NCBI RefSeq assembly: GCF_010509575.1
Contig: NZ_CP048437.1
Span: 372,001-436,000 of the forward strand
Origin: Faecalibacterium duncaniae
GTDB taxonomy: Bacteria; Bacillota; Clostridia; Oscillospirales; Ruminococcaceae
Reading direction: 5' to 3'
Length of the DNA stretch: 64,000 bases
Numbering within the stretch: position 1 is the first letter of the stretch; each line of letters starts with the position of its first letter. Of this stretch, positions 5,904 through 27,248 are shown piece after piece. The translations under genes were made by a program, and so were the position numbers. A model generated the notes under the pieces. That model saw nothing but the letters and a program-made list of their open reading frames with translations. It made no database searches and had not been told where the DNA came from.

Positions 5904-6386
5904 ATGCAGGAAGAAGTTGAAAATCGTACCGTCAATCTGGCAATCAGTACCACGAAACTGACATTTCGCACTATCGTGAATGGCTATAATGCGTGGAAAC
6001 GGCACCATCAGGCAAAGGCGGCTCAGAAATCAGCGCAGATGCCGCTTGGAAAGCAGAGCATCAAAGAACTGATCGGTCAGAATCAGGGAGTCAGCAGTAT
6101 CCCCATTGAGAAAACGGATTTGAAAGGCTTTGAACAGGTGGCGCGGAAATACGGTGTGGATTATGCCATTACGAAAGACCAAAATGTGATTCCACCCAAG
6201 TACACGGTGTTCTTTAAGGCGAAGGATGCGGATGCACTGACTTCCGCTTTTGAGGAATTCACCAACCGCAAGCTGAAAGCAAAGGAAAAACCGAGTGTTC
6301 TGGAGCAGCTTAACAAGCTCAAAGAACTGGTGGCTGCAATTCTGCCGGATAAGGTTCGTCACAAAAGTCAGGAGCGTGATCTATGA
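5904..6386 (+). CDS. pcfB: PcfB/DUF3801 conjugation protein
   Basis: 160 residues. The PcfB family feature is the C-terminal half with YTVFFKAKDADALTSAFEEF; the N-terminal part has a long helix. PcfB works with the coupling protein and relaxase in pCF10-type conjugation. The stop overlaps the virD4 start (ATGA at 6383-6386), the usual pcfB-pcfC pairing. Confidence 0.82.
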   Translation: MQEEVENRTVNLAISTTKLTFRTIVNGYNAWKRHHQAKAAQKSAQMPLGKQSIKELIGQNQGVSSIPIEKTDLKGFEQVARKYGVDYAITKDQNVIPPKYTVFFKAKDADALTSAFEEFTNRKLKAKEKPSVLEQLNKLKELVAAILPDKVRHKSQERDL

Positions 6387-8140
6387 GTAATAAGACCAAG
6401 AAGCTGCTGATCCTGAACCTGCCGTACTTCATTGCCGGTCTTGTATGTACCAATCTGGGAGAAGCGTGGAGAATTGCCGAGGGCGCAGACATGTCTGAAA
6501 AGCTCCTCGGCTTTCTTTCTGCCCTGGGTGCAGCATTTTCCAACCCGATGCCAAGTCTGCATCCGCTGGATTTGCTGATTGGTGTGTGCTGCGGAGCGGG
6601 TCTGCGGCTTGCTGTGTATCTGAAAGGCAAAAATGCCAAGAAATATCGTCATGGTATGGAGTATGGCTCTGCCCGGTGGGGTACGCAGAAAGACATCGAA
6701 CCGTTTGAAGATCCAGTGTTTGCAAACAATGTGATTCTGACCCGGACGGAGCGGCTGATGATGGGCAATCGCCCGAAGAATCCGGCAAATGCCAGAAACA
6801 AAAATGTGCTTGTGGTCGGCGGTTCCGGCAGCGGTAAGACGAGATTTTGGCTTAAACCCAACCTTTTACAATGTCACAGTTCCTACGTGGTCACTGACCC
6901 GAAAGGTGATATCGTAATCGACTGCGGCCAAGCCCTTTTGAAGAACGGATACAGTATCCGGATTTTCAATACTATCAATTTCAGAAAGTCGATGCATTAT
7001 AATCCCTTCGCGTATATTCACAGCGAAAAGGATATTTTGAAGCTGACCACAACCCTCATTGCCAACACTAAAGGGGACGGCAAGGCCGGTGACGAATTCT
7101 GGACGAAGGCAGAGACCTTGCTGTATTGTGCTTTGATTGGTTATATCCATTATGAGGCACCGCTGGAAGAGCAGAACTTTGCAACGCTGATTGAATTTCT
7201 GAACGCGATGGAAGTGCGCGAGGATGATGAAACCTTTCAGAATCCAGTGGATCAGATGTTTGAAGCTCTGAAAAAGAAAAAACCGAACCACTTTGCTGTC
7301 CGCCAATATGCCAAGTTCAAGCTGGCGGCGGGCAAGACCTTAAAGTCGATTCTGGTGAGCTGCGGTGCACGTCTGGCTCCCTTCGATATTGAGGAAGTCC
7401 GCGATATCACCATGTACGATGAGCTGTCGCTGGATACGGTGGGAGATAAGAAAACGGCTCTGTTCCTCATTATGAGCGATACAGACCCGACTTTTAATTT
7501 CCTGATTTCGATGATCTATACACAGCTGTTTAACCTGCTGTGCGAGAAAGCGGATGATATTTACGGGGGCAGATTGCCGGTGCATGTGCGCTGCCTGATT
7601 GATGAGTGTGCGAACATTGGTCAGATTCCAAATCTGGAAAAGCTGGTAGCCACCATCCGATCAAGAGAAATCTCGGCATGTCTGGTACTTCAGGCACAGA
7701 GCCAGTTGAAGGCAATCTACAAGGACAATGCCGATACCATCATCGGCAATATGGATTCTCGTATTTTCCTTGGCGGTTCGGAGCCGACTACGCTGAAAGA
7801 GCTGAATCAGGCATTGGGAAAAGAAACGATTGATCTGTACAACACTTCCGATACCAGAGGCAACAGCCCATCTTACGGCACCAATTACCAAAAGGTTGGG
7901 CATGACCTGGCTTCGGTGGATGAACTGGCTGTGCTGGATGGCGGAAAGTGCATTTTGCAGCTGCGCGGTGTCAGACCGTTCAAGTCAGATAAATACGATC
8001 TGACCCAGCATCCGAACTACAAGCTCACTGCCGGTGCTGATAAGAAAAACACGTTCAGCATCGAGACGTTTCTCGATCATCGGCTGAAGCTCAAGCCCGG
8101 TGATAAGTACGAAGTAGTTGATGCAGATCATGCCAAATAA
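6383..8140 (+). CDS. VirD4/TraG-type coupling protein
   Basis: 585 residues. Two N-terminal membrane segments (about 8-25 and 62-80) precede the cytoplasmic ATPase. Walker A is GGSGSGKT (146-153); conserved VTDPKGDIV follows, and the Walker B region is LIDECANIG (near 412). The protein brings the relaxase-DNA complex to the secretion channel and powers transfer. It overlaps pcfB and precedes the maff2/trbL/virB4 block. It is intact, so the nested IME does not interrupt it. Confidence 0.93.
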   Translation: MSNKTKKLLILNLPYFIAGLVCTNLGEAWRIAEGADMSEKLLGFLSALGAAFSNPMPSLHPLDLLIGVCCGAGLRLAVYLKGKNAKKYRHGMEYGSARWGTQKDIEPFEDPVFANNVILTRTERLMMGNRPKNPANARNKNVLVVGGSGSGKTRFWLKPNLLQCHSSYVVTDPKGDIVIDCGQALLKNGYSIRIFNTINFRKSMHYNPFAYIHSEKDILKLTTTLIANTKGDGKAGDEFWTKAETLLYCALIGYIHYEAPLEEQNFATLIEFLNAMEVREDDETFQNPVDQMFEALKKKKPNHFAVRQYAKFKLAAGKTLKSILVSCGARLAPFDIEEVRDITMYDELSLDTVGDKKTALFLIMSDTDPTFNFLISMIYTQLFNLLCEKADDIYGGRLPVHVRCLIDECANIGQIPNLEKLVATIRSREISACLVLQAQSQLKAIYKDNADTIIGNMDSRIFLGGSEPTTLKELNQALGKETIDLYNTSDTRGNSPSYGTNYQKVGHDLASVDELAVLDGGKCILQLRGVRPFKSDKYDLTQHPNYKLTAGADKKNTFSIETFLDHRLKLKPGDKYEVVDADHAK

Positions 8141-8196
8141 GTTTGTTCCGGTGACGAAGATGTCATGGGTACGCTGCTGGTAACAGAATAAGATAA

Positions 8197-8293
8197 GGGG
8201 CGGCGAGCTGCCGCCTCTTTACATAGCCAGGTTTCTGATTGGGATTGGAGACCTGGCTATATGTTTGCCCATTTGCAGGTGCACATGCAGATG
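8197..8293 (+). ncRNA. TTACATAG RNA-like module, copy B (before maff2)
   Basis: Three successive hairpins. First GGGGCGGC-gagct-GCCGCCTC (8197-8217). Then TTTACATAG with a stem CATAGCCAGGTTTC / GAGACCTGGCTAT (8222-8260). Last CATTTGCA / TGCAGATG (8270-8293) with loop GGTGCACA, which contains the self-complementary GTGCAC. Copy C, 11.7 kb away beyond the IME, has the same order, the identical 13-mer GCAGGTGCACATG and nearly the same spacing (54 versus 52 bases from ACATAG). Helix conservation with G-U changes argues for a structured RNA. The function is unknown. Confidence 0.6.
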
Positions 8294-8348
8294 GAAAATC
8301 ACTATTCATTAGCCCGCAAGGGCGCATCGTACAAGGAGGTACACATTT

Positions 8349-8507
8349 ATGGCATTTTTCAACAGCGCAGTAACCGTTCTTCAGACTCTTGTCATCGCAC
8401 TGGGTGCCGGTCTCGGCATCTGGGGAGCCATCAACCTGCTGGAGGGCTACGGCAACGACAACCCCGGTGCCAAATCCCAGGGTATGAAACAGTTTATGGC
8501 TAATTAA
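8349..8507 (+). pseudogene. maff2 small membrane protein, 5' part cut by IME
   Basis: The ATG follows AAGGAGG. The product begins MAFFNSAVTVLQTL and has a hydrophobic segment (residues 10-33) then EGYGNDNPGAKSQG, as in Maff2-family proteins placed between virD4 and trbL in these ICEs. After codon 48 the reading runs into IME DNA, which supplies FMAN and a stop, giving 52 residues. The remaining 23 codons lie at 19788-19859. Joined, the gene would encode 71 residues with two membrane segments. The truncated form may be made but lacks the second segment. Confidence 0.88.
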
Positions 8508-8570
8508 AGGGAACAAAAAGAAAGGAAAAGCACAATCCAGACGGTATCAGCGGCAGGATACAAGAATAAA

Positions 8571-8599
8571 TTGTGATTACACAAGATTGGTGTTATAAT
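8571..8599 (+). promoter_or_regulatory. Promoter at IME left end
   Basis: TTGTGA (8571-8576), a 17-base spacer, then TATAAT (8594-8599). It points at the XRE-tnpV pair. The leader holds a perfect CCGGGGC-agcc-GCCCCGG hairpin (8616-8633) without a T run, which may influence translation of the first gene. Confidence 0.7.
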
Positions 8600-8662
8600 A
8601 AGAGAAAAGTTCCTGCCGGGGCAGCCGCCCCGGTGGTATGGGTAGAAAGGCAGGAAAACAAT

Positions 8663-8935
8663 ATGCACATCAGCTATAAACCACTCTGGCACACACTGTT
8701 AGAGCGTGATATGAGAAAAGAAGATTTAAGGCTTGCCGCTGGTATGACAACGAATATGATTGCCAACATGAGCAAAGAGGGAAAGCACATCAGCATGGAC
8801 ACATTAGCCCGTATCTGTGAAACGCTGAATTGTGAGATTACCGATGTGATTGAGTTAGTACCAGACGAGCCTGCTTCCACAGGAGGTAAGGAACATGAGC
8901 GAATTGAAACCAAGAATAACGGAAAACGGAATTGA
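8663..8935 (+). CDS. Small XRE (Cro/CI) regulator
   Basis: 90 residues from ATG 8663. A single helix-turn-helix domain: MRKEDLRLAAGMTTNMIANMSKEG, then MDTLARICETLNCEITDVIEL. This is the HTH_26-type regulator common in Clostridia mobile elements. The C-terminal 20 residues are hydrophilic and overlap tnpV by 41 bases. It is the first IME gene after the promoter and probably autoregulates. Confidence 0.8.
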   Translation: MHISYKPLWHTLLERDMRKEDLRLAAGMTTNMIANMSKEGKHISMDTLARICETLNCEITDVIELVPDEPASTGGKEHERIETKNNGKRN

Positions 8936-9272
8936 TTATATCCTTGTCGGAGATTACTACATCCCGGACTTGAAACTGTCGGAAGAACGCCGCCCCATCG
9001 GAAAGTATGGACGGATGCACCGGGAATATTTAAGAGAAGTCCACCCAGCCAGATTGAACACATTGATACTGACCGGAGAATTGTGGACATATCTTGCAGA
9101 CCTGAACGAACAGGCACAGGAACGGTTAGACACTATCATGGAGCAGATGAAAGCTGCCGAGGGCGTGACCGAGGACTTGAAGCGTACCCGTCAAATGGAA
9201 TGGGTGCAGCGGTGCAATAATATCCACAACCGGGCAGAAGAAATTGTTTTGCATGAGATGATTTATTCATAA
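8895..9272 (+). CDS. tnpV: TnpV transposon-encoded protein
   Basis: 125 residues, TnpV family known from Tn4451-type elements; role unproven. Conserved blocks: GDYYIPDLKL, PIGKYGRMHREYLRE, a helical middle, and QMEWVQRCNNIHNRAEEIVLHEMI. A second tnpV homologue lies out of frame inside the ICE helicase gene (35902-36249), so the window holds two versions. The start ATG follows AGGAGGTAAGGAAC and overlaps the preceding regulator. Confidence 0.82.
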   Translation: MSELKPRITENGIDYILVGDYYIPDLKLSEERRPIGKYGRMHREYLREVHPARLNTLILTGELWTYLADLNEQAQERLDTIMEQMKAAEGVTEDLKRTRQMEWVQRCNNIHNRAEEIVLHEMIYS

Positions 9273-9357
9273 CGGTATGATAGAATGATTATGACAAATC
9301 GAAATTTGTAGGAATAGGTATTCAGGAAAATATACAGAAAATCACGCATTTGTGGGG

Positions 9358-9376
9358 ATGATACGAATCGTGTCAT
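9358..9376 (+). promoter_or_regulatory. Operator-like dyad before PAP2 gene
   Basis: ATGATACGA-A-TCGTGTCAT, a 19-bp inverted repeat with one mismatch, about 90 bases upstream of the PAP2 start and just after a possible -10 (TATACA 9331-9336). Base composition turns AT-rich here, marking the start of the cargo segment. The binding protein is not known; the XRE gene downstream is a candidate. Confidence 0.4.
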
Positions 9377-9465
9377 ACATGTGAAAGAGCGATTCTTGCG
9401 TCATTTTACGCTTTTTGATAAGGTGAAATCGTCGAAAAGACAAACCAATATAGAAAGGACGTATA

Positions 9466-10125
9466 ATGATGAAAAAGAATGGAAAACAAGTTTTATTTTT
9501 AGGAGGTATATTTATTATAGCGTTTGCAATATGGACAGCTTTGATCCAGATGGTAGACGTGCAGCCACTGGGGCAGAATGCAACGAATATTGGATTTGCA
9601 ACATTCAATTGCTGGTTTCATCGTTTAACAAATGTTAATATGACAATTTATACGATTACCGATTGGATGGGTCTGATTCCTTTAGTTGTATGCCTGATTT
9701 TTGCAGGTATTGGACTGGTTCAGTTAATAAAGAGAAGAAGTCTCTTCAAAGTGGATCCCGATATCATTATCCTGGGAGTTTATTATGTTATAGTGATACT
9801 GGCATACTTCATTTTTGAGATCATCCCAATCAATTACAGACCAATTTTAATCAATGGAATTATGGAGGCTTCTTATCCTTCTTCAACGACTCTACTGGTA
9901 TTGTGCGTGATGCCGACTTTGGTTGAACAGATCCAGCGAAGAATGTCATGTTCTACATTGAAAAGAATCATAACGATTCTAGCAATCGCTTTTTCTGCAT
10001 TCATGGTTATCGGCAGATTGATTTCCGGAGTACATTGGTTTACGGATATTGTGGGTGGTGTATTGTTAAGTGCCGGATTATTTACTGTTTATAAGGCAGT
10101 AGTTATGCTAACAATAAAAAAGTGA
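9466..10125 (+). CDS. PAP2-family membrane phosphatase (cargo)
   Basis: 219 residues with about six hydrophobic segments. PAP2 signatures: YRP (124-126) for motif 1, YPSST (137-141) for motif 2, and GRLISGVHWFTD (183-194; H190, D194) for motif 3. Motif 2 normally reads PSGH; the His is replaced by Thr while the motif 3 nucleophile His is kept. Relatives dephosphorylate undecaprenyl pyrophosphate or lipid phosphates at the membrane, and some give bacitracin tolerance; the substrate here is not known. It is low-GC, unlike its neighbours, and paired with a membrane-bound XRE gene. Confidence 0.75.
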   Translation: MMKKNGKQVLFLGGIFIIAFAIWTALIQMVDVQPLGQNATNIGFATFNCWFHRLTNVNMTIYTITDWMGLIPLVVCLIFAGIGLVQLIKRRSLFKVDPDIIILGVYYVIVILAYFIFEIIPINYRPILINGIMEASYPSSTTLLVLCVMPTLVEQIQRRMSCSTLKRIITILAIAFSAFMVIGRLISGVHWFTDIVGGVLLSAGLFTVYKAVVMLTIKK

Positions 10126-10147
10126 AATAAAAAAGGAGGTGAAGGAG

Positions 10148-10765
10148 GTGGAATTCCATGAAAAGCTTCAGGAATTAAGAAAGAGCCGAGGTTTGACACA
10201 AGAAGAACTAGCCGAGGCATTATTTGTTTCAAGAACTGCAATTTCAAAATGGGAATCCGGAAGAGGATATCCGAGCATAGATTCATTAAAGGAAATATCC
10301 AGATATTTCTCTGTGTCCATTGATGAGCTGTTATCCGGAGATCAGTTGGTTTTGATTGCTGAAAAAGAAAACAAGTCAAATCTCAATGGTCTATGTGACT
10401 TGTTATTTGGATTTACCGATTTGCTCTCTTTGATGCTTATTTTTCTTCCATTGTATTCCAAACCGGTTGATGGATATATCTATTCAGTAAGTCTTATTGA
10501 GTATGTAGATAATGAAATTTGGATTCGTATGACATACTGGGGTCTTTTTATCGCATTAACGATTATTGGAATTGTGAATATTTTAATGGTCAATTTCAAA
10601 TTTGAAAAGGGAAAAAAGGTGATTACTTTTTTGTCTGTAGGGCTTAGTATTATTACTGTTTTGTATCTGGCGATTGCGAGAGAACCATATGCAGTAACAG
10701 TGGCTTTTCTGTTGTTACTTATAAAAGGAGGTCTACTTTATAAACGAGCTATGGCCGGTCGATAA
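10148..10765 (+). CDS. XRE regulator with membrane domain
   Basis: About 205 residues. Residues 1-65 are a classic XRE helix-turn-helix (LRKSRGLTQEELAEALFVSRTAISKWESGRGYPS). The C-terminal 130 residues hold about four membrane segments. GTG 10148 is chosen because AGGAGG (10134-10139) is eight bases upstream; GTG 10139 also opens the frame. Membrane-tethered XRE regulators of this kind sense envelope stress in Firmicutes, and the neighbour is a lipid phosphatase, so it may regulate that gene. AT-rich cargo. Confidence 0.78.
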   Translation: MEFHEKLQELRKSRGLTQEELAEALFVSRTAISKWESGRGYPSIDSLKEISRYFSVSIDELLSGDQLVLIAEKENKSNLNGLCDLLFGFTDLLSLMLIFLPLYSKPVDGYIYSVSLIEYVDNEIWIRMTYWGLFIALTIIGIVNILMVNFKFEKGKKVITFLSVGLSIITVLYLAIAREPYAVTVAFLLLLIKGGLLYKRAMAGR

Positions 10766-10825
10766 GGAGTTGAGCCATACAAATTCAAGTTTGTCGTTCT
10801 GAAAATTTAACTGAATAACCACAGT

Positions 10826-10875
10826 AAAAACCGCTGCTACATGGAAGCTAACAAACCATGCAACAGCGGTTTTTC
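10826..10875. terminator. Bidirectional terminator
   Basis: AAAAACCGCTG (10826-10836) pairs with CAGCGGTTTTT (10864-10874); inside it CATGG pairs with CCATG. It lies between two convergent genes and can end transcription on both strands. Confidence 0.88.
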
Positions 10876-10876
10876 T

Positions 10877-11683
10877 TTACCGTTTTTTCCTTTGGCTGAT
10901 AGGCGTGCTCATTTTCTTTGACTTTTTGAGAATCCGAATAAGCCAGCGAAATTCTTCATCTGACAGATTTTTATAGTTGATACCGAGCTGCTTGCAGTAA
11001 AGCACTGCCAGTTTTTCCAAACGGCTGCCCTTGAAATTTTCGACCGCTTCCAGATTTTCTTTCAGTTCATTGGCAACAGTGGTCTGGGGCGCACTCTCAC
11101 TATCCTTTTTATGGGTTTCCCGAATATCCCGGATAATCAGGTTTAGGTCATCCAGAACCATGTGGCTGAAATATTCATCATCACTGATATGGGCGGCTTG
11201 CAGCACTTTCAAATGTGGGTCATCTTCGCCAGGGCGATACCGTTCTATGATTTCATGTCGGACAGTATCGACAAGGGTGTTGAGGTTTTGAATCTGCATG
11301 GTGGCAATCCCATCCACATAAATCTCAATGTCCGCAAGAAACTTGATAAAGTCCTTATGGGTGGCAAGTTCGCAGAGCAGACGGTTGTTAATCCGACCGC
11401 TTTTCAGAAGTGCTACCATCTCATCACTCAAATGCAGCTCCCTTAATGGCGTATTGATCTCCGCTCGGTTCTCTGTCCGGCACAGCAGATAATCGACGGA
11501 AACCCCATAGAAGTCTGCCAGCGTGATAAGGTTGCCATGATTGATTTCCTTAAAATCTTCTTTTTCATAACTGCCAAGGGCTGATTTAGAAATACCCGTT
11601 AGTTTTGATAGTTCTTCCAGATTTAAGCCTTTGTCCTTGCGGAGTTCCCAAAGGCGTTCCTGTATGCTTGTTGCTCCTTTCAT
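10877..11683 (-). CDS. XRE-family repressor of the IME
   Basis: About 268 residues from the ATG at 11683 (minus strand), preceded by AAAGGAG; an upstream in-frame GTG at 11689 is weaker. Residues 5-72 are an XRE domain (LWELRKDKGLNLEELSKLTGISKSALGSYE, then LADFYGVSVDYLL). The long C-terminal part is helical with no recognised domain and ends in lysine-rich sequence. It is the only reverse-strand gene of the IME, divergent from the replication/mobilisation genes, the layout of an element master repressor; that role is inferred. Confidence 0.8.
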   Translation of the reverse strand: MKGATSIQERLWELRKDKGLNLEELSKLTGISKSALGSYEKEDFKEINHGNLITLADFYGVSVDYLLCRTENRAEINTPLRELHLSDEMVALLKSGRINNRLLCELATHKDFIKFLADIEIYVDGIATMQIQNLNTLVDTVRHEIIERYRPGEDDPHLKVLQAAHISDDEYFSHMVLDDLNLIIRDIRETHKKDSESAPQTTVANELKENLEAVENFKGSRLEKLAVLYCKQLGINYKNLSDEEFRWLIRILKKSKKMSTPISQRKKR

Positions 11684-11729
11684 GGGCACACGCTCCTTTC
11701 CAACGGTTTCATTGCTGCCGCTTATCTGG

Positions 11730-11759
11730 ATTATATCACACTTTCCGTAATCGTGGAAA
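11730..11759 (-). promoter_or_regulatory. Promoter/operator of the IME XRE gene
   Basis: Read on the minus strand: TTTCCA (11754-11759), 18-base spacer, TATAAT (11730-11735). An inverted repeat TTTCC-n8-GGAAA (11742-11759) covers the -35 region and may be the operator for autoregulation. Confidence 0.55.
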
Positions 11760-12166
11760 TTTCTGATTTTTACCCTTAATTCCTACTTTGTGGACATACG
11801 GCACAGGGCACAAAAATGTTCTATGATACAGGTAGTTCATCGATGGATTATTCCAATCGAATGACCAGCCTGTGTGGGATATGCTTCCCCGGCGATGTAG
11901 CGCCATGAATTTTGGCAGGGATATGGAGGAACCCTGACCAAAACGAGCGTACCAAAGGGAGCGATACGCCGCTGTGAGATTCAGGGGAGGAACGACACCG
12001 GGGAGAACTGGCGAACTGACACCGAAATGATACCGAAACACAACAATCTGATAGGGGGACAGTCTACCCTATCGCTGATACTTCGGGAGATTTTAAGCGG
12101 CTCTATGGCTGTAATTTTACCGAAAATCGCCCCGAAACCATACACTAAAACGGGAGGAAGCGCAAT
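11760..12166. other. Intergenic region between divergent IME genes
   Basis: About 400 bases without a convincing gene on either strand; ORFs here lack ribosome binding sites and family resemblance. The sequence contains short repeats (GACACCG at about 11992 and 12019, GATACCG at 12030) and ends with CGGGAGG before the next start. It may hold the forward promoter; no clear -35/-10 pair was found. Confidence 0.4.
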
Positions 12167-12355
12167 ATGCCGAGAATGAGCAAAAAGAGGAAGCATGAGC
12201 TTTCCTTTTACCTCAATGACCGGGGGCGTGTCACTTACAACGAATTATGCCGGAAATGCCAGCATGGGTGCAAGCAGAGCTTCCGGGCGGTTGTGATTGA
12301 CTGCCCCCGTTATTTATCCAAACGAGCAAAGAAAAAGGAGAAACACACCGAATGA
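12167..12355 (+). CDS. Cysteine-rich VLP protein
   Basis: 62 residues, strongly basic. It matches the small cysteine-rich VLP proteins that accompany TnpX-type IMEs: VTYNELCRKCQHGCKQSF gives three Cys in a CxxCxxxC pattern, with a fourth in VIDCPRYL, a likely zinc site. The role is unknown; it opens the IME replication/mobilisation operon and overlaps the next gene by four bases. Confidence 0.75.
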   Translation: MPRMSKKRKHELSFYLNDRGRVTYNELCRKCQHGCKQSFRAVVIDCPRYLSKRAKKKEKHTE

Positions 12356-12693
12356 ATTTTGAATTTATGACGATAGACACACCATTGCCACCCTGTATGC
12401 CATTTCCCAAAGCGTTGACAGGATTTCCAGTCAGCAGCACCGCAAAGGTCATGTACTGCCGGATGCTGGACGCTATGTTATCCAAAGGGCAGGAGGACGA
12501 GAACGGAATCCTCTTTGTCTGCTTCCCTGTCACAGCCATTGCCGCAGTCCTGTCCCGCAGCTCCATGACGGTCAAGCGTTCTCTGAATGAACTGGAAACT
12601 GCCGGACTTATCATGCGGGTGCGTCAGGGCATTGGAGAACCAAACCGGATTTATGTGCTGATACCGGGAAAGGAGGACGCTGCCCTTGCCTGA
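12352..12693 (+). CDS. RepA_N-like helix-turn-helix protein
   Basis: 113 residues. It resembles the N-terminal DNA-binding domain of RepA_N initiators: MPFPKALTGFPVSSTAKVMYCRMLD, GILFVCFPVTAIA, then the recognition helix region SSMTVKRSLNELETAGLI. It is shorter than full RepA_N initiators (about 300 residues or more), so it may be an accessory initiator or regulator working with the IME primase and VapE proteins. Confidence 0.72.
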   Translation: MNFEFMTIDTPLPPCMPFPKALTGFPVSSTAKVMYCRMLDAMLSKGQEDENGILFVCFPVTAIAAVLSRSSMTVKRSLNELETAGLIMRVRQGIGEPNRIYVLIPGKEDAALA

Positions 12694-12982
12694 TACCTCA
12701 AAGCTGGAAAAACTCAATCGGGAGTTGGAAAAAAGCGAAAAGAAACTGCGGAAAGCCATCAATGATGAAAAGGCATTGCAGCACCAGTTGAAACAGCTTA
12801 CCCGAAAGGAACGGACGCACCGGCTCTGTACCCGTGGCGGTATGCTGGAAAGTTTTCTGCAAGAGCCGGAACGCCTGACAGATGATGATGTCATGCTGTT
12901 GTTGAAACTCATTTTTCACAGGCAGGACACGCAGGAACTATTGAAAAAACTGCTGGAACGGGAGAAGGCGGAAACCCCTTAG
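12686..12982 (+). CDS. DUF3847 protein
   Basis: 98 residues, mostly coiled-coil (KLEKLNRELEKSEKKLRKAINDEKALQHQLKQL), then RTHRLCTRGGMLES, the DUF3847 signature. The likely start is TTG 12686 after AGGAGG, overlapping the preceding gene. These proteins sit just before the relaxase/oriT region in many MOBQ mobilizable elements and may be relaxosome accessories. Confidence 0.75.
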   Translation: MPDTSKLEKLNRELEKSEKKLRKAINDEKALQHQLKQLTRKERTHRLCTRGGMLESFLQEPERLTDDDVMLLLKLIFHRQDTQELLKKLLEREKAETP

Positions 12983-13062
12983 TTTACTAAGGGCGCAATT
13001 ATACACCACCCAGAGGTTGGTGCATTGCGTTCTCCGAAGGCTCCTTGCCGGAGGGCTGTGAT
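12975..13062 (-). other. Candidate oriT of the IME (MOBQ type)
   Basis: Read on the minus strand the segment around 12984-12998 is AATTGCGCCCTTAGT, containing the GCGCCCTTA core typical of RSF1010-type (MOBQ) nick regions. Beside it lies an inverted repeat CACCACCC-aga-GGTTGGTG (13003-13021), then CTCCG...CGGAG (13032-13053). Position upstream of a MOBQ relaxase fits an origin of transfer. The exact nick site is inferred. Confidence 0.55.
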
Positions 13063-13209
13063 TTTCCGCAGTCATGGTCTGCTCCAAATCAAACAGGGGA
13101 CGCTACGCTTCCCCTGCGCTGGCTGCCGCCAGCTACCCTTTTGTGGACTTGCCATCTGGGGACACCTTGCGTTGCAAGCTGTTCCCAGCCGACAAGTTTC
13201 ATAAAATAT

Positions 13210-13240
13210 GCTATCTTTTCGATAGCCAATGAAGTATAAT
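13210..13240 (+). promoter_or_regulatory. Promoter with GCTATC dyad
   Basis: TATAAT at 13235-13240, with an inverted repeat GCTATC-ttttc-GATAGC (13210-13226) covering the -35 region. It lies just before the cargo gene and overlaps its apparent ATG at 13239, which argues that translation starts further down at GTG 13284. Confidence 0.5.
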
Positions 13241-13283
13241 GAAGATGACAACAAATCGGAAGTTGACAAGGAGTTTTGATAGC

Positions 13284-13808
13284 GTGAAAAAAATATTTCT
13301 TAAAATTGTGATAGGGGTTGTTCTTGCTTGTATTTTATTTGTTTGTTTTCTTTATACGAACAATGAGATCGGCGTGACTTCATCTAAGCTGGAGGCAGAT
13401 ATTCGTTCGTCGCAGAAGATTAAGGATGATTGGACGGTCGATGGAAGCGTTTCCAGCACGATGGCTGCATATATTTCTTACCCTCAGGATTTGAGTGACC
13501 ATTCTTTTTCCGTCTATGTCAACCGTCCTGGTCTTTCCTTTGGATACTTTTTCCGTGGGGGTGGAAACCTTTCGGGGGTTCAAAGAGGAATTGCCGAGTA
13601 CACCGTAGAAGGATATAATGAGCGAGCATTTATTTCTATGAATCAGCAACAGGTAACACAGCTTGAAATAGATGACGGCAACACAATTCAAGTGCTTGAC
13701 ATTGACAGCAATAAACCTTTTGCGATTGTTTTGCCTATAAGTGCGGGAACCATTACATTCTATGATGTGAATGGCAATACTGTGGAATACTGGAACAATT
13801 CTCTTTGA
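13284..13808 (+). CDS. Membrane-anchored protein, unknown (cargo)
   Basis: About 174 residues from GTG 13284 (AAGGAG upstream); an ATG at 13239 gives 189 residues but overlaps the promoter -10. One N-terminal membrane anchor (IFLKIVIGVVLACILFVCFL) is followed by an extracellular region with beta-rich sequence (YISYPQDLSDHSFSVYVNRPG). No family was recognised. It is AT-rich compared with the surrounding mobilisation genes, so it is probably a recently gained cargo gene. Confidence 0.6.
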   Translation: MKKIFLKIVIGVVLACILFVCFLYTNNEIGVTSSKLEADIRSSQKIKDDWTVDGSVSSTMAAYISYPQDLSDHSFSVYVNRPGLSFGYFFRGGGNLSGVQRGIAEYTVEGYNERAFISMNQQQVTQLEIDDGNTIQVLDIDSNKPFAIVLPISAGTITFYDVNGNTVEYWNNSL

Positions 13809-13880
13809 CAACTTCACATCGGGTCAGCTTGCCCCGAACTTTTACAACTAAATACCCGCCGCCAACACAGCGGCGCACCG

Positions 13881-13915
13881 AGCAGGAAATCTGAAAAAGG
13901 TCTCCTGCTTTTTTT
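13881..13915 (+). terminator. Terminator before the relaxase gene
   Basis: AGCAGGA (13881-13887) pairs with TCCTGCT (13903-13909), followed by TTTTTT. It ends the cargo transcript. A second small hairpin, GGTGG-taaaacg-CCACC, lies closer to the relaxase start (about 13930-13946). Confidence 0.8.
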
Positions 13916-13978
13916 CTGCCCAAAATGAGGTGGTAAAACGCCACCCCATCCACCAATTAGCGAAAGGAGGGATACGAA

Positions 13979-15559
13979 ATGCCCTGTCCACACAACGAAA
14001 TCACGATTGTTCAGCGCAGTCAACGGCAGTCTGCTGTTGCCGCCGCTGCTTACCAGAGTGGCGAAAAACTGTTCTGTGAATATGACCAGCAAGTGAAGCA
14101 CTACCCGGAAAAGCGTGGTATCGTCCACAATGAAATCCTGCTTCCGGCAAACGCCCCGCCGGAGTATGCAGACCGCAATACCTTATGGAACGCCGCCGAA
14201 GCGGTGGAGAAGCAATGGAACTCCCAGCTTGCAAGGAGGTGGGTGCTTACTATCCCCAGAGAGATACCGCCCGACCAGTACGCTGTCCTTGTCCGGGAGT
14301 TTTGCCAGAAGCAGTTTGTTTCCAAAGGCATGATTGCTGATTTTGCTATCCATGACCCCCATCCGCCGGGACACAATCCCCACGCCCATGTCTTGCTCAC
14401 TATGAGGGCAATAGACGAACATGGGAAATGGCTTCCCAAGAGCCGCAAGGTTTATGACCTTGATGAAAGCGGAGAACGGATAAAACTTCCGTCCGGCAGG
14501 TGGAAAAGCCACAAGGAGGATACGGTGGACTGGAACGACCAGAAGTATTGTGAAATCTGGCGGCATGAATGGGAGGTCATCCAGAACCGCTATCTGGAAG
14601 CCAATGACCGCCCGGAGCGTGTGGACTTGCGTTCCTATGCCAGACAGGGGCTTGATATAGTTCCCACTGTCCATGAGGGGGCTGCTGTCCGGCAGATGGA
14701 AAAGCGTGGTATCCAGACGAATATCGGCAACCTGAACCGGGAAATCAGAGCCGCCAACCGCCTGATGAAGTCCATCCGGCAGCTTATCCAAAACCTCAAA
14801 GGCTGGATTACCGAGCTGGGTGAAAAACGGAAAGAGCTGCTTGCACAAAAAGCGGCGGAGGAAGCAACGCTTCTTCCCAATCTGCTGATGAAGTATATGG
14901 AGATACGAAAGGAAGAACGGAAGGACTGGACAAGGGCTGGACAAAACCGGGGAACTTCACAGGACTTAAAGGCAGTCAGCGAAGCCCTGTCCTATCTCCG
15001 GCAAAAGGGGCTTTCCACTGTGGAGGACTTGGAAGCATTTCTGGAATCTTCCGGGAAATCAGCCGCAGATTACCGCAATCAGATGAAGCCAAAGGAAGCC
15101 CGAAGCAAAGTGATTGACGGGATTCTTGCCAGCCGGACAGACTGCAAGGAATGTGAGCCTGTCTATGAGAAGTACCAGAAGATATTTTTTAAGAAAACAA
15201 AGGAGAAATTCAAACAGGAACACCCGGAGGTCGCCCGGTATGAGAAAGCCGCCGCCTACCTTGCCAAGCACCCGGACGATAAGGACAGCACCCAAAAGGA
15301 GCTGAAAGAGGAGCAGGAAAAACTTGTCGGCGAAATCGCAGAGCTGAAAGAACCTTTGACCGAGGTACAGGCTGATTTGAAGAAACTGCGGGACATCCGC
15401 TACTGGGTACGGAAAGCCACACCCGGCACAGAGGAAAGCAAAGAGCCGCCCAAGAAACAGCCTATCAAAGAAGTCTTGCAGGATAAGGCGGACGAGAAAA
15501 AAGCACAAAGGACTGCCCCGGCGCAGACAAAACACAGACAACAGGATATGGAACTTTAA
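13979..15559 (+). CDS. MobA/MobL relaxase (MOBQ)
   Basis: 526 residues. The N-terminal relaxase domain (1-210) has the catalytic Tyr in AYQSG (Y25) and the metal-binding His motif HDPHPPGHNPHAH (H125, H132, H135, H137). The C-terminal half is a long charged coiled coil. It nicks one strand at oriT and pilots it through a coupling protein. AAAGGAGGG precedes the ATG. The candidate oriT lies about 0.95 kb upstream, separated by the cargo gene. Confidence 0.9.
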   Translation: MPCPHNEITIVQRSQRQSAVAAAAYQSGEKLFCEYDQQVKHYPEKRGIVHNEILLPANAPPEYADRNTLWNAAEAVEKQWNSQLARRWVLTIPREIPPDQYAVLVREFCQKQFVSKGMIADFAIHDPHPPGHNPHAHVLLTMRAIDEHGKWLPKSRKVYDLDESGERIKLPSGRWKSHKEDTVDWNDQKYCEIWRHEWEVIQNRYLEANDRPERVDLRSYARQGLDIVPTVHEGAAVRQMEKRGIQTNIGNLNREIRAANRLMKSIRQLIQNLKGWITELGEKRKELLAQKAAEEATLLPNLLMKYMEIRKEERKDWTRAGQNRGTSQDLKAVSEALSYLRQKGLSTVEDLEAFLESSGKSAADYRNQMKPKEARSKVIDGILASRTDCKECEPVYEKYQKIFFKKTKEKFKQEHPEVARYEKAAAYLAKHPDDKDSTQKELKEEQEKLVGEIAELKEPLTEVQADLKKLRDIRYWVRKATPGTEESKEPPKKQPIKEVLQDKADEKKAQRTAPAQTKHRQQDMEL

Positions 15560-15624
15560 CAGGCACTTGCCATTTTCAATCAGAGAATGTCAGGTGCTTT
15601 TCTTATTTTCAAGGAGGGATAGAT

Positions 15625-16269
15625 TTGAATGTATTTGAAGCTGTGAAGCAGTCTGTTACAACAAGACAGGCTGCGGAGCATTATGGAATCCATGTAGGTC
15701 GGAACGGGATGGCTTGCTGCCCGTTCCATCACGATAAGACCCCAAGCATGAAGCTGGATCGGCGTTACCATTGCTTCGGCTGCGGTGCTGATGGGGATGT
15801 GATTGATTTTACCGCCGCCCTGTATGGGCTGGGAAAGAAAGAAGCCGCCGTACAACTGGCACAGGACTTCGGGCTTTCCTATGAGGACTGGAAACCGCCG
15901 GGAAAGGTAAAAAAGCCCAAGCCCCGGCAGAAATCCCCGGAGGAACAGTTTCAGGAAGCAAAGAACCGCTGCTTCCGTATCCTTGCCGATTATCTCCACC
16001 TGCTTAGGGCATGGAGAAAGGATTATGTCCCGCACTCCCCGGAGGAAACCGTTCATCCCCGGTTTGTGGAAGCCTTACAGAAGCAAGCCCAAGTGGAATA
16101 TCTGCTGGATGTGCTGCTCTTTGGGGAAACGGAGGAAAAAGCGGCTTTGATTACGGACTACGGAAAGGATGTGATACAGCTTGAACAGCGAATGGCAGAG
16201 CTTGCAGCCGCAGACGCAGCAAGAACTAAAAAACACCATGAACGCCATGCAGCCACCCCAGAGCGTTGA
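15625..16269 (+). CDS. CHC2 zinc-finger primase-like protein
   Basis: 214 residues, starting at TTG 15625 after AAGGAGGG. Residues 10-75 are a DnaG-type CHC2 zinc finger (CCPFH at 31-35, CFGCG at 50-54). There is no TOPRIM catalytic domain; the C-terminal half is helical. With the VapE helicase next door it probably forms the IME replication initiation pair. Its 3' end overlaps vapE by 89 bases in a different frame. Confidence 0.82.
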   Translation: MNVFEAVKQSVTTRQAAEHYGIHVGRNGMACCPFHHDKTPSMKLDRRYHCFGCGADGDVIDFTAALYGLGKKEAAVQLAQDFGLSYEDWKPPGKVKKPKPRQKSPEEQFQEAKNRCFRILADYLHLLRAWRKDYVPHSPEETVHPRFVEALQKQAQVEYLLDVLLFGETEEKAALITDYGKDVIQLEQRMAELAAADAARTKKHHERHAATPER

Positions 16270-17575
16270 GGAAATCAAGGCGGGGCTGGAAACTACCGAG
16301 AAAGGCGGTGTCCGTCAGAGCATACGGAACTGCCTGACCGTATTCCAGCGTGACCCGCTGCTTTCCGGGGCTATCGCATACAACATTCTGACCGACCGCA
16401 AGGACATCATAAAGCCCATCGGTTTTCACAGGGAAAGCACCGCCCTGAACGATACGGACATGAAGTATCTGCTTCTTTATCTGGAAGAAACCTATGGGCT
16501 TACCAATGAGAAAAAGATTGATAACGCCATCGGGATTGTGGCGAATGAAAACAAGTACCATCCCATCCGGGACTATCTCAATACCCTTGTGTGGGACGGG
16601 ACAGAACGAATCCGTTTCTGCCTGCGGCACTTTCTGGGGGCTGACGCAGACGATTACACCTATGAAGCGTTGAAGCTGTTCCTGCTGGGTGCAATCTCAC
16701 GAGCCTTTCAGCCGGGGTGCAAGTTTGAAATCATGCTCTGTCTGGTAGGTGGTCAGGGGGCTGGCAAGTCCACCTTCTTCCGTCTGCTGGCAGTCCGGGA
16801 CGAGTGGTTCTCCGATGATTTGCGGAAGCTGGACGATGACAATGTGTATCGCAAGCTGCAAGGTCACTGGATTATCGAAATGTCGGAAATGATGGCAACC
16901 GCAAACGCCAAGAGCATTGAGGAAATCAAGTCATTTTTAAGCCGGCAGAAAGAGGTTTACAAGATACCCTATGAAACCCACCCGGCAGACCGCCCCCGTC
17001 AGTGCGTGTTTGGCGGCACTTCCAATGCCCTTGACTTCCTGCCCCTTGACCGTTCCGGCAACCGCCGCTTTATCCCCGTCATGGTGTACCCGGAGCAAGC
17101 CGAGGTTCACATTTTGGAGGATGAAGCTGCTTCCAGAGCCTATATCGAGCAGATGTGGGCAGAAGCTATGGAGATTTACCGAAGCGGCAGGTTCAAGCTG
17201 GCTTTCAGCCCCGCCATGCAGCGGTATCTCAAAGAACACCAGCGGGATTTTATGCCGGAGGACACCAAAGCCGGGATGATACAGGCGTATCTTGATAAGT
17301 ACACCGGGAGCATGGTCTGCTCCAAGCAGCTCTACAAGGAAGCCTTGAACCATGCCTTTGACGAGCCGAAACAATGGGAAATCCGGGAAATCAACGAGAT
17401 TATGAACCAGTGCATTGACCGCTGGCGGTACTTCCCGAACCCAAGAATGTTTTCAGAATATGGCAGACAAAAGGGCTGGGAGCGTGAAAACCCGGCAACG
17501 GACTCCGGCAACCCGTCTGAAAAAACGATGGATGGTTTTGTGGAGGTCACAGAACAGATGGAGCTTCCATTCTGA
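16181..17575 (+). CDS. VapE-like P-loop replication helicase
   Basis: 464 residues from TTG 16181 (ATG 16238 is an alternative). Virulence-associated E family: Walker A GGQGAGKS (190-197), then DDNVYRKLQGHWIIEMSEM and SNALDFLPLDRSGNRRF with the arginine-finger type ending. Superfamily 3-like hexameric helicases of this kind drive replication of phage satellites and IMEs. It overlaps the primase gene and is followed by GTTGCC repeats that may be the origin. Confidence 0.87.
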   Translation: MNSEWQSLQPQTQQELKNTMNAMQPPQSVEEIKAGLETTEKGGVRQSIRNCLTVFQRDPLLSGAIAYNILTDRKDIIKPIGFHRESTALNDTDMKYLLLYLEETYGLTNEKKIDNAIGIVANENKYHPIRDYLNTLVWDGTERIRFCLRHFLGADADDYTYEALKLFLLGAISRAFQPGCKFEIMLCLVGGQGAGKSTFFRLLAVRDEWFSDDLRKLDDDNVYRKLQGHWIIEMSEMMATANAKSIEEIKSFLSRQKEVYKIPYETHPADRPRQCVFGGTSNALDFLPLDRSGNRRFIPVMVYPEQAEVHILEDEAASRAYIEQMWAEAMEIYRSGRFKLAFSPAMQRYLKEHQRDFMPEDTKAGMIQAYLDKYTGSMVCSKQLYKEALNHAFDEPKQWEIREINEIMNQCIDRWRYFPNPRMFSEYGRQKGWERENPATDSGNPSEKTMDGFVEVTEQMELPF

Positions 17576-17773
17576 AAATGACAGCCCGTTGCACCCCCTG
17601 TTGCTATCCCGTTGCCGAGCCGGTTGCCGGGGAAAATCCCGAAACTATCGGCTTTTCTCCCCTATGACAACCAAAACAACAGAAAAATAAAAGAAAAGTA
17701 TAAATAGTAACCATCGCCAGATTGAGATTGTTTGCAAGGTCTTTTGAAGCCCGTTGCCGGACTTCGTTGCCGA
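17492..17773 (+). repeat. GTTGCC repeats, candidate IME origin
   Basis: GTTGCCG-type units occur at about 17611, 17623, 17753 and 17766 on the plus strand and, inverted as CCGGCAAC, at 17492 and 17505; shorter GTTGC copies lie at 17589 and 17600. Between the groups (17660-17710) is an AT-rich stretch. Repeats plus AT-rich DNA right after the primase/VapE genes suggest an iteron origin. The units could instead be operator sites. Confidence 0.45.
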
Positions 17774-17816
17774 CACCCTCTGTCTGGCTATTTTCATGTA
17801 TGGAGGATAACTGCCT

Positions 17817-18014
17817 ATGGCAAAAAACAAAACAGAGATTCATGTTACAACGGTGTTTGACGGGGAGCTGGACGCAACCGATGTGTTCGTCAGCCTGATT
17901 TCCCAGAAATACGGTAAGACAAATACGAAAGAATATCTTGCTAAAAGGAAAGATATGAGCTATAATGAAGATGAGGTTCAAAAGAGCCAGATACCGTCTG
18001 GATTGTGTGGGTAA
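17817..18014 (+). CDS. tnpW: TnpW-family small protein
   Basis: 65 residues, matching TnpW-like proteins that precede the large serine recombinase in TnpX-type elements: VFDGELDATDVFVSLISQKYG, then YNEDEVQKSQIPSGLCG. Role unproven. It ends two bases into the spacing before the recombinase start, so the two are co-translated. Confidence 0.72.
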   Translation: MAKNKTEIHVTTVFDGELDATDVFVSLISQKYGKTNTKEYLAKRKDMSYNEDEVQKSQIPSGLCG

Positions 18015-19685
18015 ATGGCTATGATGAACGAAATGGAATACAGAACAATCGGTTCGGCACTTGCCGGAGGGTATCGTGCAGCGGTCTATTGCAGGCTGTC
18101 AAAGGACGATGACCTGCAAGGCGAAAGTGCCAGTATCGCAAACCAGCGTGATATGCTGGAAAAATACTGCGAAAAGCAGGGATGGGAGGTTGTGGCAGTC
18201 TATCAGGACGATGGCTTCACAGGTCTTAATATGGAGCGTCCTGATTTACAGAGAATGTTGAGAGCCATTGAGCGCAGGCAAATCAACCTTGTCATCACGA
18301 AAGACCTCAGCCGACTGGGGCGTAACTATCTGCAAACCGGGCATTTGATTGAGGACTTTTTCCCAAGAAACGGTGTCCGCTATATCGCCATGAATGACGG
18401 TATCGACACCCTGCGTGATAACAACGATATTGCCCCGTTCAAGAATATCCTGAACGAGATGTACAGCAAGGATATTTCCAAGAAAGTCCATTCCTCTTAT
18501 CTTCTGAAAGCGCAGAAAGGACAGTTTACCGGGTGTCTTGCCCCGTTTGGGTATCGGAAAGACCCGGAGGACAAAAACCATCTGCTCATTGACGAGGAAA
18601 CCGCCCCGATTGTGCGGCTGATTTTCGGTTATGCCCTAAACGGTCATGGTCCGAACTATATCCGCAGACGTCTGGAGGAAGAAAAAATCCCCTGCCCCAC
18701 ATGGTGGAACCGGGAACGGGGGCTTCGCAATACCCGAACCAAATGGGAAAAGAAAGACCCGGAAAACGGACGGTATATGTGGGACTTCTCCGTTATCAAA
18801 GACCTTTTGATGAATCCCGTCTACACCGGGGCGATTGCTTCCCAGAAAAAAGACTACCGTTTCAAAATCGGCACGATTGGGGAAAAGAAGCCGGAGGACT
18901 GGATTGTGGTGGAGGGACAGCATGAACCGCTGATTGACCGCATGAGCTTTGACATTGTGCAGAACAAGCTGAAATCCCGCCAGCGTCCGGGGCAGACCAA
19001 TGAAATCAGCCTGTTTGCCGGACTGATAAAATGCGGCGAGTGTGGGAAGTCGCTGACGATACGCTACACAAACGCAAAACATCCCCAGCAGATTTATTCC
19101 TGCAAGACCTACAATGCCTTTGGAAAGAATCACTGCACCCAGCACCGGATTGACTATGACACCCTTTACAGCCATGTGCTGCGGAAAATCCGGGAATGTG
19201 CCAGAGCTGCCCTGATGGACGGGGAAGCGGTTGCCGACCGCCTGACCAACACTTGTGAAGCCGAGAAGCGGGAACAGCGGGAAGCAATGGAACGCTCCCT
19301 TACAAGGGACGAGGAACGGATTGAGGTTCTGAACAAAATGGTCATGCGGCTTTATGAGGATATGATTGCAGGGCGTATCAGTGAGCAGAATTTCAACACC
19401 ATGCTGGAAAAGACACAGACCGAGCAGACGGAGCTTAAAACAAAAGTGTCAGATGGCAGAAAGCGGCTGTCCGATGAAGTCCAGCTTGCCAATGACGCAA
19501 AACAATGGGTGGAAGCCATTCAGGAATACGCCAATATCACAGAGCTGGACGCAGCCACCCTCAACCGCTTAATCAAAGAAATCGTCGTGCATGAGCGCAT
19601 TGACGAAGATAAAACAAGACACATTTCTATCGAAATTCATTTTAATCTCAAACCCATCCCAGAGGTGGAACAGGTCACTGCCTGA
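18015..19685 (+). CDS. TnpX-like large serine recombinase
   Basis: 556 residues. The catalytic domain (20-160) has YCRLSKDD with nucleophile S29, and DLSRLGRNYL. A recombinase domain follows (about 175-290), then a zinc ribbon with C340, C343, C363 and C374, and a C-terminal coiled coil with the DUF4368-like end. Such enzymes integrate and excise circular elements at short target cores; here the element sits in maff2 and the shared core is about AAACAG. The gene ends 100 bases before the right junction. Confidence 0.93.
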   Translation: MAMMNEMEYRTIGSALAGGYRAAVYCRLSKDDDLQGESASIANQRDMLEKYCEKQGWEVVAVYQDDGFTGLNMERPDLQRMLRAIERRQINLVITKDLSRLGRNYLQTGHLIEDFFPRNGVRYIAMNDGIDTLRDNNDIAPFKNILNEMYSKDISKKVHSSYLLKAQKGQFTGCLAPFGYRKDPEDKNHLLIDEETAPIVRLIFGYALNGHGPNYIRRRLEEEKIPCPTWWNRERGLRNTRTKWEKKDPENGRYMWDFSVIKDLLMNPVYTGAIASQKKDYRFKIGTIGEKKPEDWIVVEGQHEPLIDRMSFDIVQNKLKSRQRPGQTNEISLFAGLIKCGECGKSLTIRYTNAKHPQQIYSCKTYNAFGKNHCTQHRIDYDTLYSHVLRKIRECARAALMDGEAVADRLTNTCEAEKREQREAMERSLTRDEERIEVLNKMVMRLYEDMIAGRISEQNFNTMLEKTQTEQTELKTKVSDGRKRLSDEVQLANDAKQWVEAIQEYANITELDAATLNRLIKEIVVHERIDEDKTRHISIEIHFNLKPIPEVEQVTA

Positions 19686-19787
19686 CCTGTCCCGCCGGGA
19701 CGGTTCTCTTAAAAACACCATATAGATTTTTTGTACGCCGCCGCCCGCCATCGAGCAGAGTTTTACACCTAATTGGGTATAAAACAG

Positions 19788-19859
19788 CTGATGGCTGGCG
19801 GCGGCGTGGCACTGATCGGTACGACTCTGGTGCCGCTGCTTTCCGGTCTGTTCGGTTAA
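19788..19859 (+). pseudogene. maff2, 3' part beyond the IME
   Basis: Continues the reading frame of the 5' part: LMAGGGVALIGTTLVPLL ... FG then TAA 19857-19859. It supplies the second membrane segment of the 71-residue protein and has no start of its own with a ribosome binding site. Precise excision of the IME would restore the gene. Confidence 0.85.
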
Positions 19860-19889
19860 GCAAAAGCTGTCGGAGCGAAGATTCCGGCC

Positions 19890-19980
19890 GGGCGGCGAAA
19901 GCTGCCTGTTACATAGTCAGGTGCAGGCAATCTCCGCAGCTGGCTATTTTCTGCGCTCTCTGGCAGGTGCACATGTTGGA
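19890..19980 (+). ncRNA. TTACATAG RNA-like module, copy C
   Basis: GGCGGC-gaaa-GCTGCC (19891-19906), then TTACATAG with a stem ATAGTCAGGTGC / GCAGCTGGCTAT (19913 to about 19947), then CTGGCA / TGTTGG (19960-19979, wobble-paired) around loop GGTGCACA. The 13-mer GCAGGTGCACATG (19963-19975) is identical to copy B. It lies 70 bases before the 32-residue gene. Without the IME, copies B and C would be only about 400 bases apart, flanking maff2. Confidence 0.6.
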
Positions 19981-20051
19981 AGTATGGCGCAGAACCGCAG
20001 TTTAGAATCGCACCGGCGGATAGGCCGGACAAGTTACAGGAGGACAAATCT

Positions 20052-20150
20052 ATGGCGTTTCTTACTACAACTGCATCGGCACTGTCTCTTTTCTCTCAGC
20101 TGTTCATGCTTCTGTCCCGGATGGCGAAGCTGTTCGGCGTGTTTGCGTAA
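20052..20150 (+). CDS. Small hydrophobic protein between maff2 and trbL
   Basis: 32 residues after a strong ACAGGAGG site: starts MAFLTTTASALSLF and has one hydrophobic segment. The MAF start and location resemble a shortened Maff2 paralogue. It is preceded by RNA-like module C exactly as maff2 is preceded by module B. Function unknown, probably part of the conjugation membrane complex. Confidence 0.6.
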   Translation: MAFLTTTASALSLFSQLFMLLSRMAKLFGVFA

Positions 20151-27156: not shown

Positions 27157-27248
27157 AAGCTATGGACTCTGTAGGCGATATCTGATAAAATAGAAAGTAA
27201 GAACAGCTCAACAACTCGGAATTTTACCATTCAGATTTCCGTGCTCTG

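What the first reader, a model, noticed from the sequence alone, without database searches (positions are those of the whole stretch)
8197..19980. Two copies of a structured RNA-like module share a GCAGGTGCACATG loop
Copies B (8197-8293) and C (19890-19980) each show three hairpins in the same order: GGCGGC-type stem, TTACATAG stem, and a stem capped by GGTGCACA. The 13-mer is identical and the ACATAG-to-13-mer spacing is 54 and 52 bases. Stem sequences differ but pairing is kept, partly by G-U. GTGCAC in the loop is self-complementary and could form kissing dimers. Each copy precedes a small MAF-starting hydrophobic protein gene. I do not recognise it as a named riboswitch.
Basis: partly seen in the sequence, partly recalled or inferred. 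Interest (0 to 1): 0.8.

Follow-up and report, generated by a model that had tools for sequence, protein, structure and literature searches.

The report
Conserved leader RNA of conjugative elements
A three-hairpin RNA element with an almost unchanging eight-base loop sits directly in front of a small conjugation-locus gene (maff2) in some mobile elements of gut bacteria; no described RNA family matches it, and it probably controls that gene's expression.

Summary
Modules B (8195-8294) and C (19890-19994) both fold into three hairpins whose last apical loop is exactly GGUGCACA. I found 14 distinct members, all 58-102 nt before maff2 (whole, cut short or decayed) or, for C, a 32-aa MAFL ORF. Thirteen of 14 keep AGGUGCACAU. 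Stems differ while pairing is kept: 88.2% of 287 cells in 12 members, 52 two-sided changes against 17.1 in shuffles. The maff2-sense strand folds better than its complement in 14 of 14. Rfam has no match. It is a minority leader type: 5 of 80 nearest maff2 loci, in one trbL group and scattered there. Best reading: a cis-acting leader RNA, with a terminator-like hairpin followed by a sequence-specific recognition loop, that gates maff2 and downstream transfer genes. The RNA-level reading is well supported; the mode of action (factor-dependent readthrough, kissing dimer, mRNA processing) is inferred and untested.

The parts
6383..8140 (+). VirD4-type coupling protein gene upstream of module B
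   Evidence: PF02534 E 3.7e-55
8195..8219 (+). Module B hairpin 1 (GGCGGC type; not clear in every member)
   Evidence: fold
8220..8260 (+). Module B: TACATA box and hairpin 2
   Evidence: fold; CM match 8198-8315, 94.5 bits
8269..8294 (+). Module B hairpin 3, apical loop GGTGCACA at 8278-8285
8349..8507 (+). maff2, 5' part, cut off by the inserted IME
   Evidence: PF12750 positions 1-51 of 70; site without insert in L170
8481..19774 (+). IME inserted in maff2 (MobA/MobL relaxase, VapE-like protein, large serine recombinase); ends approximate
19776..19859 (+). maff2, 3' tail
   Evidence: PF12750 positions 45-70 at genome 391776-391853 = window 19776-19853; stop at 19857-19859 read
19890..19907 (+). 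Module C hairpin 1
   Evidence: fold
19910..19947 (+). Module C: TACATA box and hairpin 2
   Evidence: fold; CM match 19890-20003, 84.3 bits
19949..19994 (+). Module C hairpin 3, apical loop GGTGCACA at 19966-19973
20052..20150 (+). 32-aa MAFL hydrophobic ORF in front of trbL, the place that a further maff2 copy takes in L025 and L028
   Evidence: no Pfam or NCBIfam match
20166..21032 (+). TrbL/VirB6-like gene downstream
   Evidence: PF19478 E 6.6e-68

Best explanation
The module is a cis-acting 5' leader RNA of maff2 in one lineage of Tn1549/Tn5252-like integrative conjugative elements. Shown by comparison: a TACATA box, a terminator-like hairpin 2 and a hairpin 3 whose 8-nt loop GGUGCACA hardly changes while its stem does; the strand that carries the maff2 message is the better folded one. 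Inferred: hairpin 2 stops or slows RNA polymerase coming from virD4 or cargo genes, and hairpin 3 is the recognition site through which a trans factor (element or host protein, or a second RNA with the same self-complementary loop) decides whether transcription goes on into maff2, trbL and the rest of the transfer genes, or protects that message.
For: 14 distinct members, all 58-102 nt upstream of maff2 (whole, cut short or decayed) or of the MAFL ORF. In the R3 search all 10 places at E <= 0.001 in 7 of 396 family genomes are of this kind, although the model holds no maff2 sequence. Two of them were not used to build R3: L225, 69 bits, with different stems, and L222, 96 bits. Pair counts on 12 members: 88.2% of 287 cells paired against 71.2% in shuffles, 52 two-sided changes against 17.1, 0 of 500 shuffles as high; slid controls pair 32-46%. 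Alignment-free: 10 of 12 members present the motif as an apical loop with closing-pair probability 0.79-0.98, against means of 0.01-0.06 with shuffled flanks. Sense strand more stable than antisense in 14 of 14; 26 G-U against 12 A-C cells. At least 4 T in a row after hairpin 2 in 11 of 14. No promoter-like site around B and C by the strict scan. Maff2 leaders as a group are structured (mean z about -2.9, 60 loci) and maff2 coding starts are not (about +1.1).
Against: The terminator scan finds no sense-strand terminator around B or C, and B has no U-run after hairpin 2; L162 and L179 have no run of 4 T either. A looser promoter scan gives 10 hits in 8 of 14 members against about 6.6 expected from shuffles, so a promoter inside the leader is not excluded. 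L162 and L163 form the loop weakly (P 0.25 and 0.06; L163 reached by 6 of 100 shuffles). No trans factor was identified; no LoaP above cut-off in the host genome. Only 5 of 80 nearest maff2 loci carry the module within the fetched flank, so it is not essential to this gene. RNAalifold on the plain MAFFT alignment finds only 9 pairs, so the pair counts rest on structure-fitted alignments. No expression data.
Confidence: 0.5

Rival explanations
1. Kissing-loop RNA: the self-complementary GUGCAC in the 8-nt loop pairs with the same loop on another transcript (or B with C on one transcript), and the dimer state sets stability or translation of the maff2 message.
For: 13 of 14 loops keep GUGCAC; the loop duplex is computed at -10.7 kcal/mol. 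A second leader type in the same trbL group (L031, L039, L051) has a conserved loop with another 6-nt palindrome, GUCGAC.
Against: Palindromic 8-nt loops are not clearly enriched once members are set aside: 7 of 135 hairpins in 116 leaders against 2.1 expected, but 4 of the 7 are members. 8 of 11 module-bearing genomes searched whole have one copy. The bases around the palindrome (AG before, AU after in the 10-mer) are as fixed as the palindrome, which a protein site would also explain. L163 has lost the palindrome.
Confidence: 0.2
2. Intercistronic processing element: hairpin 1, the UUACAUA box and hairpin 2 mark an endonuclease cut that separates the maff2 message from the gene before it and protects both new ends.
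For: TTACATA is preceded directly by a GC-rich hairpin in 16 of 46 distinct places, against 6 of 470 for nine anagrams, in several cases just after a gene's stop codon.
Against: Does not explain the fixed GGUGCACA loop; hairpin 1 is missing or unclear in several members.
Confidence: 0.15
3. Ordinary tandem intrinsic terminators that insulate cargo genes; loop identity is shared ancestry only.
For: T-runs after hairpin 2 in 11 of 14 and after hairpin 3 in some, such as L034, L161 and L179.
Against: 18 of 26 pairs show a change on both sides while the 10-nt loop motif is the same in 13 of 14; terminator loops are not expected to be kept. B has no U-run.
Confidence: 0.1
4. DNA-level site: a single-strand hairpin recombination or insertion site (TTAC at the left, TCAA at the right, as recalled for IS200/IS605 ends) used when cargo enters the element next to maff2.
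For: Cargo upstream of the module differs between members; in L020 cargo lies between hairpin1-TTACATA and TACATAG-hairpin 2.
Against: Strand bias towards the maff2 sense; the members found lie beside maff2, not scattered; TCAA is absent at that place in 4 of 14 (B, C, L161, L179; read). No search for a Y1 transposase was made.
Confidence: 0.05

Closest known systems
LoaP-dependent dfn leader hairpin and terminator (Bacillus velezensis; PMC12691694, passages seen)
   Same: A small hairpin with a specific loop next to an intrinsic terminator in the 5' leader of a long operon of a Gram-positive bacterium
   Different: dfn uses a UNCG-type loop and lies at the start of the operon; here an 8-nt GGUGCACA loop follows the terminator-like hairpin, in mid-operon; no LoaP above cut-off in the host genome
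put RNA of phage HK022 and the EAR element (recalled, not tested apart from Rfam)
   Same: Hairpins with conserved loops or bulges in operons with internal terminators
   Different: No match in the Rfam searches; no readthrough data
Retroviral dimer-initiation-type kissing loops (recalled)
   Same: Palindromic 6-mer flanked by purines in a hairpin loop
   Different: No evidence of dimer formation; different kind of genome
IMEs inserted in maff2 (IME_Rho_tet, PMC12904643; streptococcal IMEs, PMC5357655 and PMC5704250; passages seen)
   Same: Explains why B and C are 11.7 kb apart
   Different: Concerns the insertion, not the RNA; whether this IME belongs to one of those families was not tested

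Membership tests
Any Rfam 15 family | Score at or above the gathering cut-off | tested here: not met
   0 matches in the window; at E <= 5 eight weak hits in 12.2 kb, all far below cut-off, one of them (P5, 23.3 bits, cut-off 60) touching hairpin 1 of C
LoaP antitermination leader | UNCG-type hairpin loop | tested here: not met
   Loop of hairpin 3 is GGUGCACA in 13 of 14 members
LoaP antitermination leader | LoaP encoded in the genome | tested here: not met
   One NusG-like hit, 86.7 bits, cut-off 125; the same model rings below cut-off in 13 of 14 control genomes
Cis-regulatory leader RNA (general kind) | Conserved structure with compensatory changes upstream of homologous genes | tested here: met
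Cis-regulatory leader RNA (general kind) | Is transcribed and alters downstream expression | not testable with these tools
   No transcript data
Intrinsic terminator | GC-rich hairpin followed by a U-run | tested here: inconclusive
   Hairpin 2: at least 4 T in 11 of 14; the consensus scan finds none on the sense strand around B or C
Kissing-loop RNA | Self-complementary loop kept across members | tested here: inconclusive
   13 of 14 keep GUGCAC, but so are the letters around it kept; no independent enrichment

The most novel reading that the evidence does not exclude
Maff2 leaders of these elements carry lineage-specific loop codes (GUGCAC here, GUCGAC in a sister type) that pair in trans, so that copies of an element, or co-resident elements of the same type, sense each other through RNA and set the expression of their own transfer genes.
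Probability: 0.1. Interest if true: 0.8.

Novelty: new variant of a known kind. Interest (0 to 1): 0.55.

Why it matters
IMEs that sit in maff2 of such conjugative elements spread tetracycline resistance genes in gut bacteria (PMC12904643, passages), and my searches turned up no account of how the transfer genes around maff2 are switched. A compact, testable RNA switch in front of maff2, a conserved gene of unknown function in the transfer region, gives a handle on that. It also shows that maff2 leaders as a class are strongly structured, of which this is one type among several.

Tried and rejected
Rfam searches of the window and of 12.2 kb around the modules gave nothing. Pattern scans of viral contigs gave 0, 21 and 2 stretches; run through the models, 1 of the 21 is a member (L156, the same contig as L179), and of the 2 one is L156 again and the other (L213) is not. 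A pattern scan of 391 class genomes gave matches in 8 genomes; the seven loci from the other genomes are not members, nor are the two further exact 13-mers of the host genome, L003 and L004. Of 37 maff2 loci in viral contigs 1 is a member (L179). Blastn of B with maff2 matched 20 plasmid and 9 phage records, through maff2 only as far as listed; of the 8 regions fetched none holds a module.

Loop ATG as a leader-peptide start: AUG follows in 13 of 14 (AUA in L162), but the reading frames differ in length and frame, so set aside. Palindromic-loop enrichment: not convincing.

Rows dropped: L173 and L175 (one type, upstream of a gene that I take for DAHP synthase from recall, loop AAGTGCACAT) fitted R1 and R2 but have no maff2, and R2 had been trained on L173; L173 is in alignment A3 but not in A5, R3 or any member count. 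L164 (G079, 29 bits, matching both strands) dropped as a plain hairpin. L106/L159 dropped as the same as L022; the G566 and G813 pairs as the same as B and C. L222 and L225 came too late for the pair counts and. In the trbL tree (86 loci tried, 65 with a match, 63 used) the members L034, L162, L163, L172, L179, L222 and L225 are not placed. RNAalifold on the MAFFT alignment found 9 pairs only. Maff2 has no solved relative by sequence (one hit, E 0.72).

Papers: Maff2 searches, structured-RNA and Tn1549 searches and a LoaP search seen as listings; passages of PMC12904643, PMC5704250, PMC5357655 and PMC12691694 seen; a word search of the main texts of PMC8040213 and PMC11109978 finds no maff2 or conjug* (supplements not open, and PMC8040213 predicts thousands of RNAs that may be listed there). 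On these searches I found no description of this RNA in print.
Full report
What is there. Module B (8195-8294) lies between the virD4-type gene and maff2, module C (19890-19994) between the end of maff2 and a 32-aa MAFL ORF followed by trbL. Each folds on the + strand into hairpin 1, a TACATA box with hairpin 2, and hairpin 3 with the exact apical loop GGUGCACA. The exact 13-mer occurs nowhere else in the window; in the 3.1 Mb host genome it is exact at four places, and at the two others the models find no module.

Why the copies are far apart. Maff2 (PF12750) breaks off at profile position 51, and its tail lies at 19776-19859. Between them are a MobA/MobL relaxase, a VapE-like protein and a large serine recombinase: an IME. 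Locus L170, from the genome of Roseburia inulinivorans DSM 16841, aligns to the two sides at 99.8 and 99.9% with no insert. IME insertion in maff2 is known (PMC12904643, PMC5357655, PMC5704250; passages).

Relatives. Of the 80 nearest maff2 loci, five carry the module within the fetched flank: L020 (Oscillibacter valericigenes, before its second maff2), L022 (Fournierella massiliensis), L025 (Mordavella massiliensis), L028 (Butyricicoccus pullicaecorum) and L034 (a Parasporobacterium MAG). L179 came from a viral-contig scan, L222 and L225 from model R3 (7 of 396 family genomes). In 391 class genomes R2 hit two: G000, and one copy of the set-aside L173 type. Large scans used strict filters, so these are lower bounds. 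The 14 distinct members are B, C, L020 (=L168), L022, L025, L028, L034, L161, L162, L163, L172, L179, L222 and L225. Thirteen keep AGGUGCACAU; L163, before a decayed maff2, has AGGUGUAUAU. All are followed by maff2 (cut short in B, L172 and L225, decayed in L162 and L163) or, for C, by the MAFL ORF, 58-102 nt after the start of the 10-nt loop motif.

Is it RNA structure? On 12 members 88.2% of 287 cells pair, with 52 two-sided changes in 18 of 26 pairs; shuffles give 71.2% and 17.1, none of 500 as high; sliding the partners drops pairing to 32-46%. That alignment was fitted to the structure, and the unfitted MAFFT alignment gives only 9 consensus pairs, so I add an alignment-free test: with the 10-mer held in place and the flanks shuffled, the loop-closing pair has mean probability 0.001-0.06, against 0.98 in eight members, 0.79 in two, 0.25 in L162 and 0.06 in L163; of 100 shuffles each, none reaches the observed value in nine members, 1 in L028, 2 in C and 6 in L163. 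The maff2-sense strand is more stable than its complement in 14 of 14 (by only 0.1 kcal/mol in L020), and G-U cells outnumber A-C cells 26 to 12. Both point to the transcript, not to strand-symmetric DNA. Members are related, so none of these counts is a probability.

What varies. Hairpin 1 is clear in some members only, but the unit hairpin-TTACATA recurs in these elements: 16 of 46 distinct TTACATA places against 6 of 470 for nine anagrams. L056 and L094 have TACATA-hairpin 2 with another hairpin 3. L031, L039 and L051 carry a different hairpin with loop AGUCGACG. On a trbL tree of 63 rows the six module-bearing rows all lie in one 28-row group (support 99), scattered (5 changes; shuffles 5.8, 96 of 500 as low), and none in the other 35 rows; seven members could not be placed. 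Maff2 leaders are structured in both groups (mean z -2.91 and -2.98; coding starts +1.1 and +1.05; 25 and 35 loci). The Enterococcus plasmid pMG2200 has a short maff2 leader, and R2 finds no module in the fetched 2.6 kb.

How it may work. A terminator-like hairpin in mid-operon (at least 4 T after hairpin 2 in 11 of 14), no promoter-like site by the strict scan around B or C, then a hairpin with a fixed loop: the simplest reading is conditional entry of polymerase or ribosomes into maff2 and the genes behind it, with the loop as the site of recognition. Against this, B has no U-run, the consensus scan finds no sense-strand terminator around B or C, and a looser promoter scan gives 10 hits in 8 of 14 members where shuffles give about 6.6. 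A kissing dimer through GUGCAC remains open. LoaP-type control is the nearest described logic (PMC12691694, passages), but its loop is UNCG and no LoaP passes cut-off in the host.

Standing. A new RNA family of a known general kind (structured leader), well supported as RNA, function inferred.

Noticed in passing
L031:1390-1503, L039:490-560, L051:1250-1320: A second conserved hairpin type in maff2 leaders: TCAGTCGACGG loop (palindrome GTCGAC) on differing stems, preceded by a TGCGC-type palindrome. No Rfam match in L031 or L051; in L039 only a tRNA elsewhere.
   Followed up: partly
window 27091-27160, 42848-42885, 1137-1195; L020:1759, L025:621, L028:979, L030:1405 and 1726: Recurring unit of GC-rich hairpin followed by TTACATA, or (1137-1195) a TTACATAG hairpin with a T-run, several of them just after a stop codon or before a gene.
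   Followed up: partly
L025:381-2601, L028:744-2604, L222:523-1856: Two or three maff2 copies in a row with different cargo genes between them.
   Followed up: no
G000 (host genome): 13 Maff2 matches, among them four head-and-tail pairs some 9-22 kb apart, so maff2 is hit repeatedly by insertions.
   Followed up: no
L225:1846-2046: Group II intron (RF02004, 178 bits) just downstream of a maff2 that is cut short after GYGNDN.
   Followed up: partly
window 45562-46807: BrxA and BrxB, proteins of BREX defence systems, next to the relaxase gene of the conjugative element.
   Followed up: no
window 29403-30806 (-): IS1182-family transposase inside the conjugative element.
   Followed up: no
L173:1501-1602 (-), L175:1501-1602: A hairpin with loop AAGTGCACAT upstream of a gene that looks like DAHP synthase (recalled); chance or distant kin.
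   Followed up: partly
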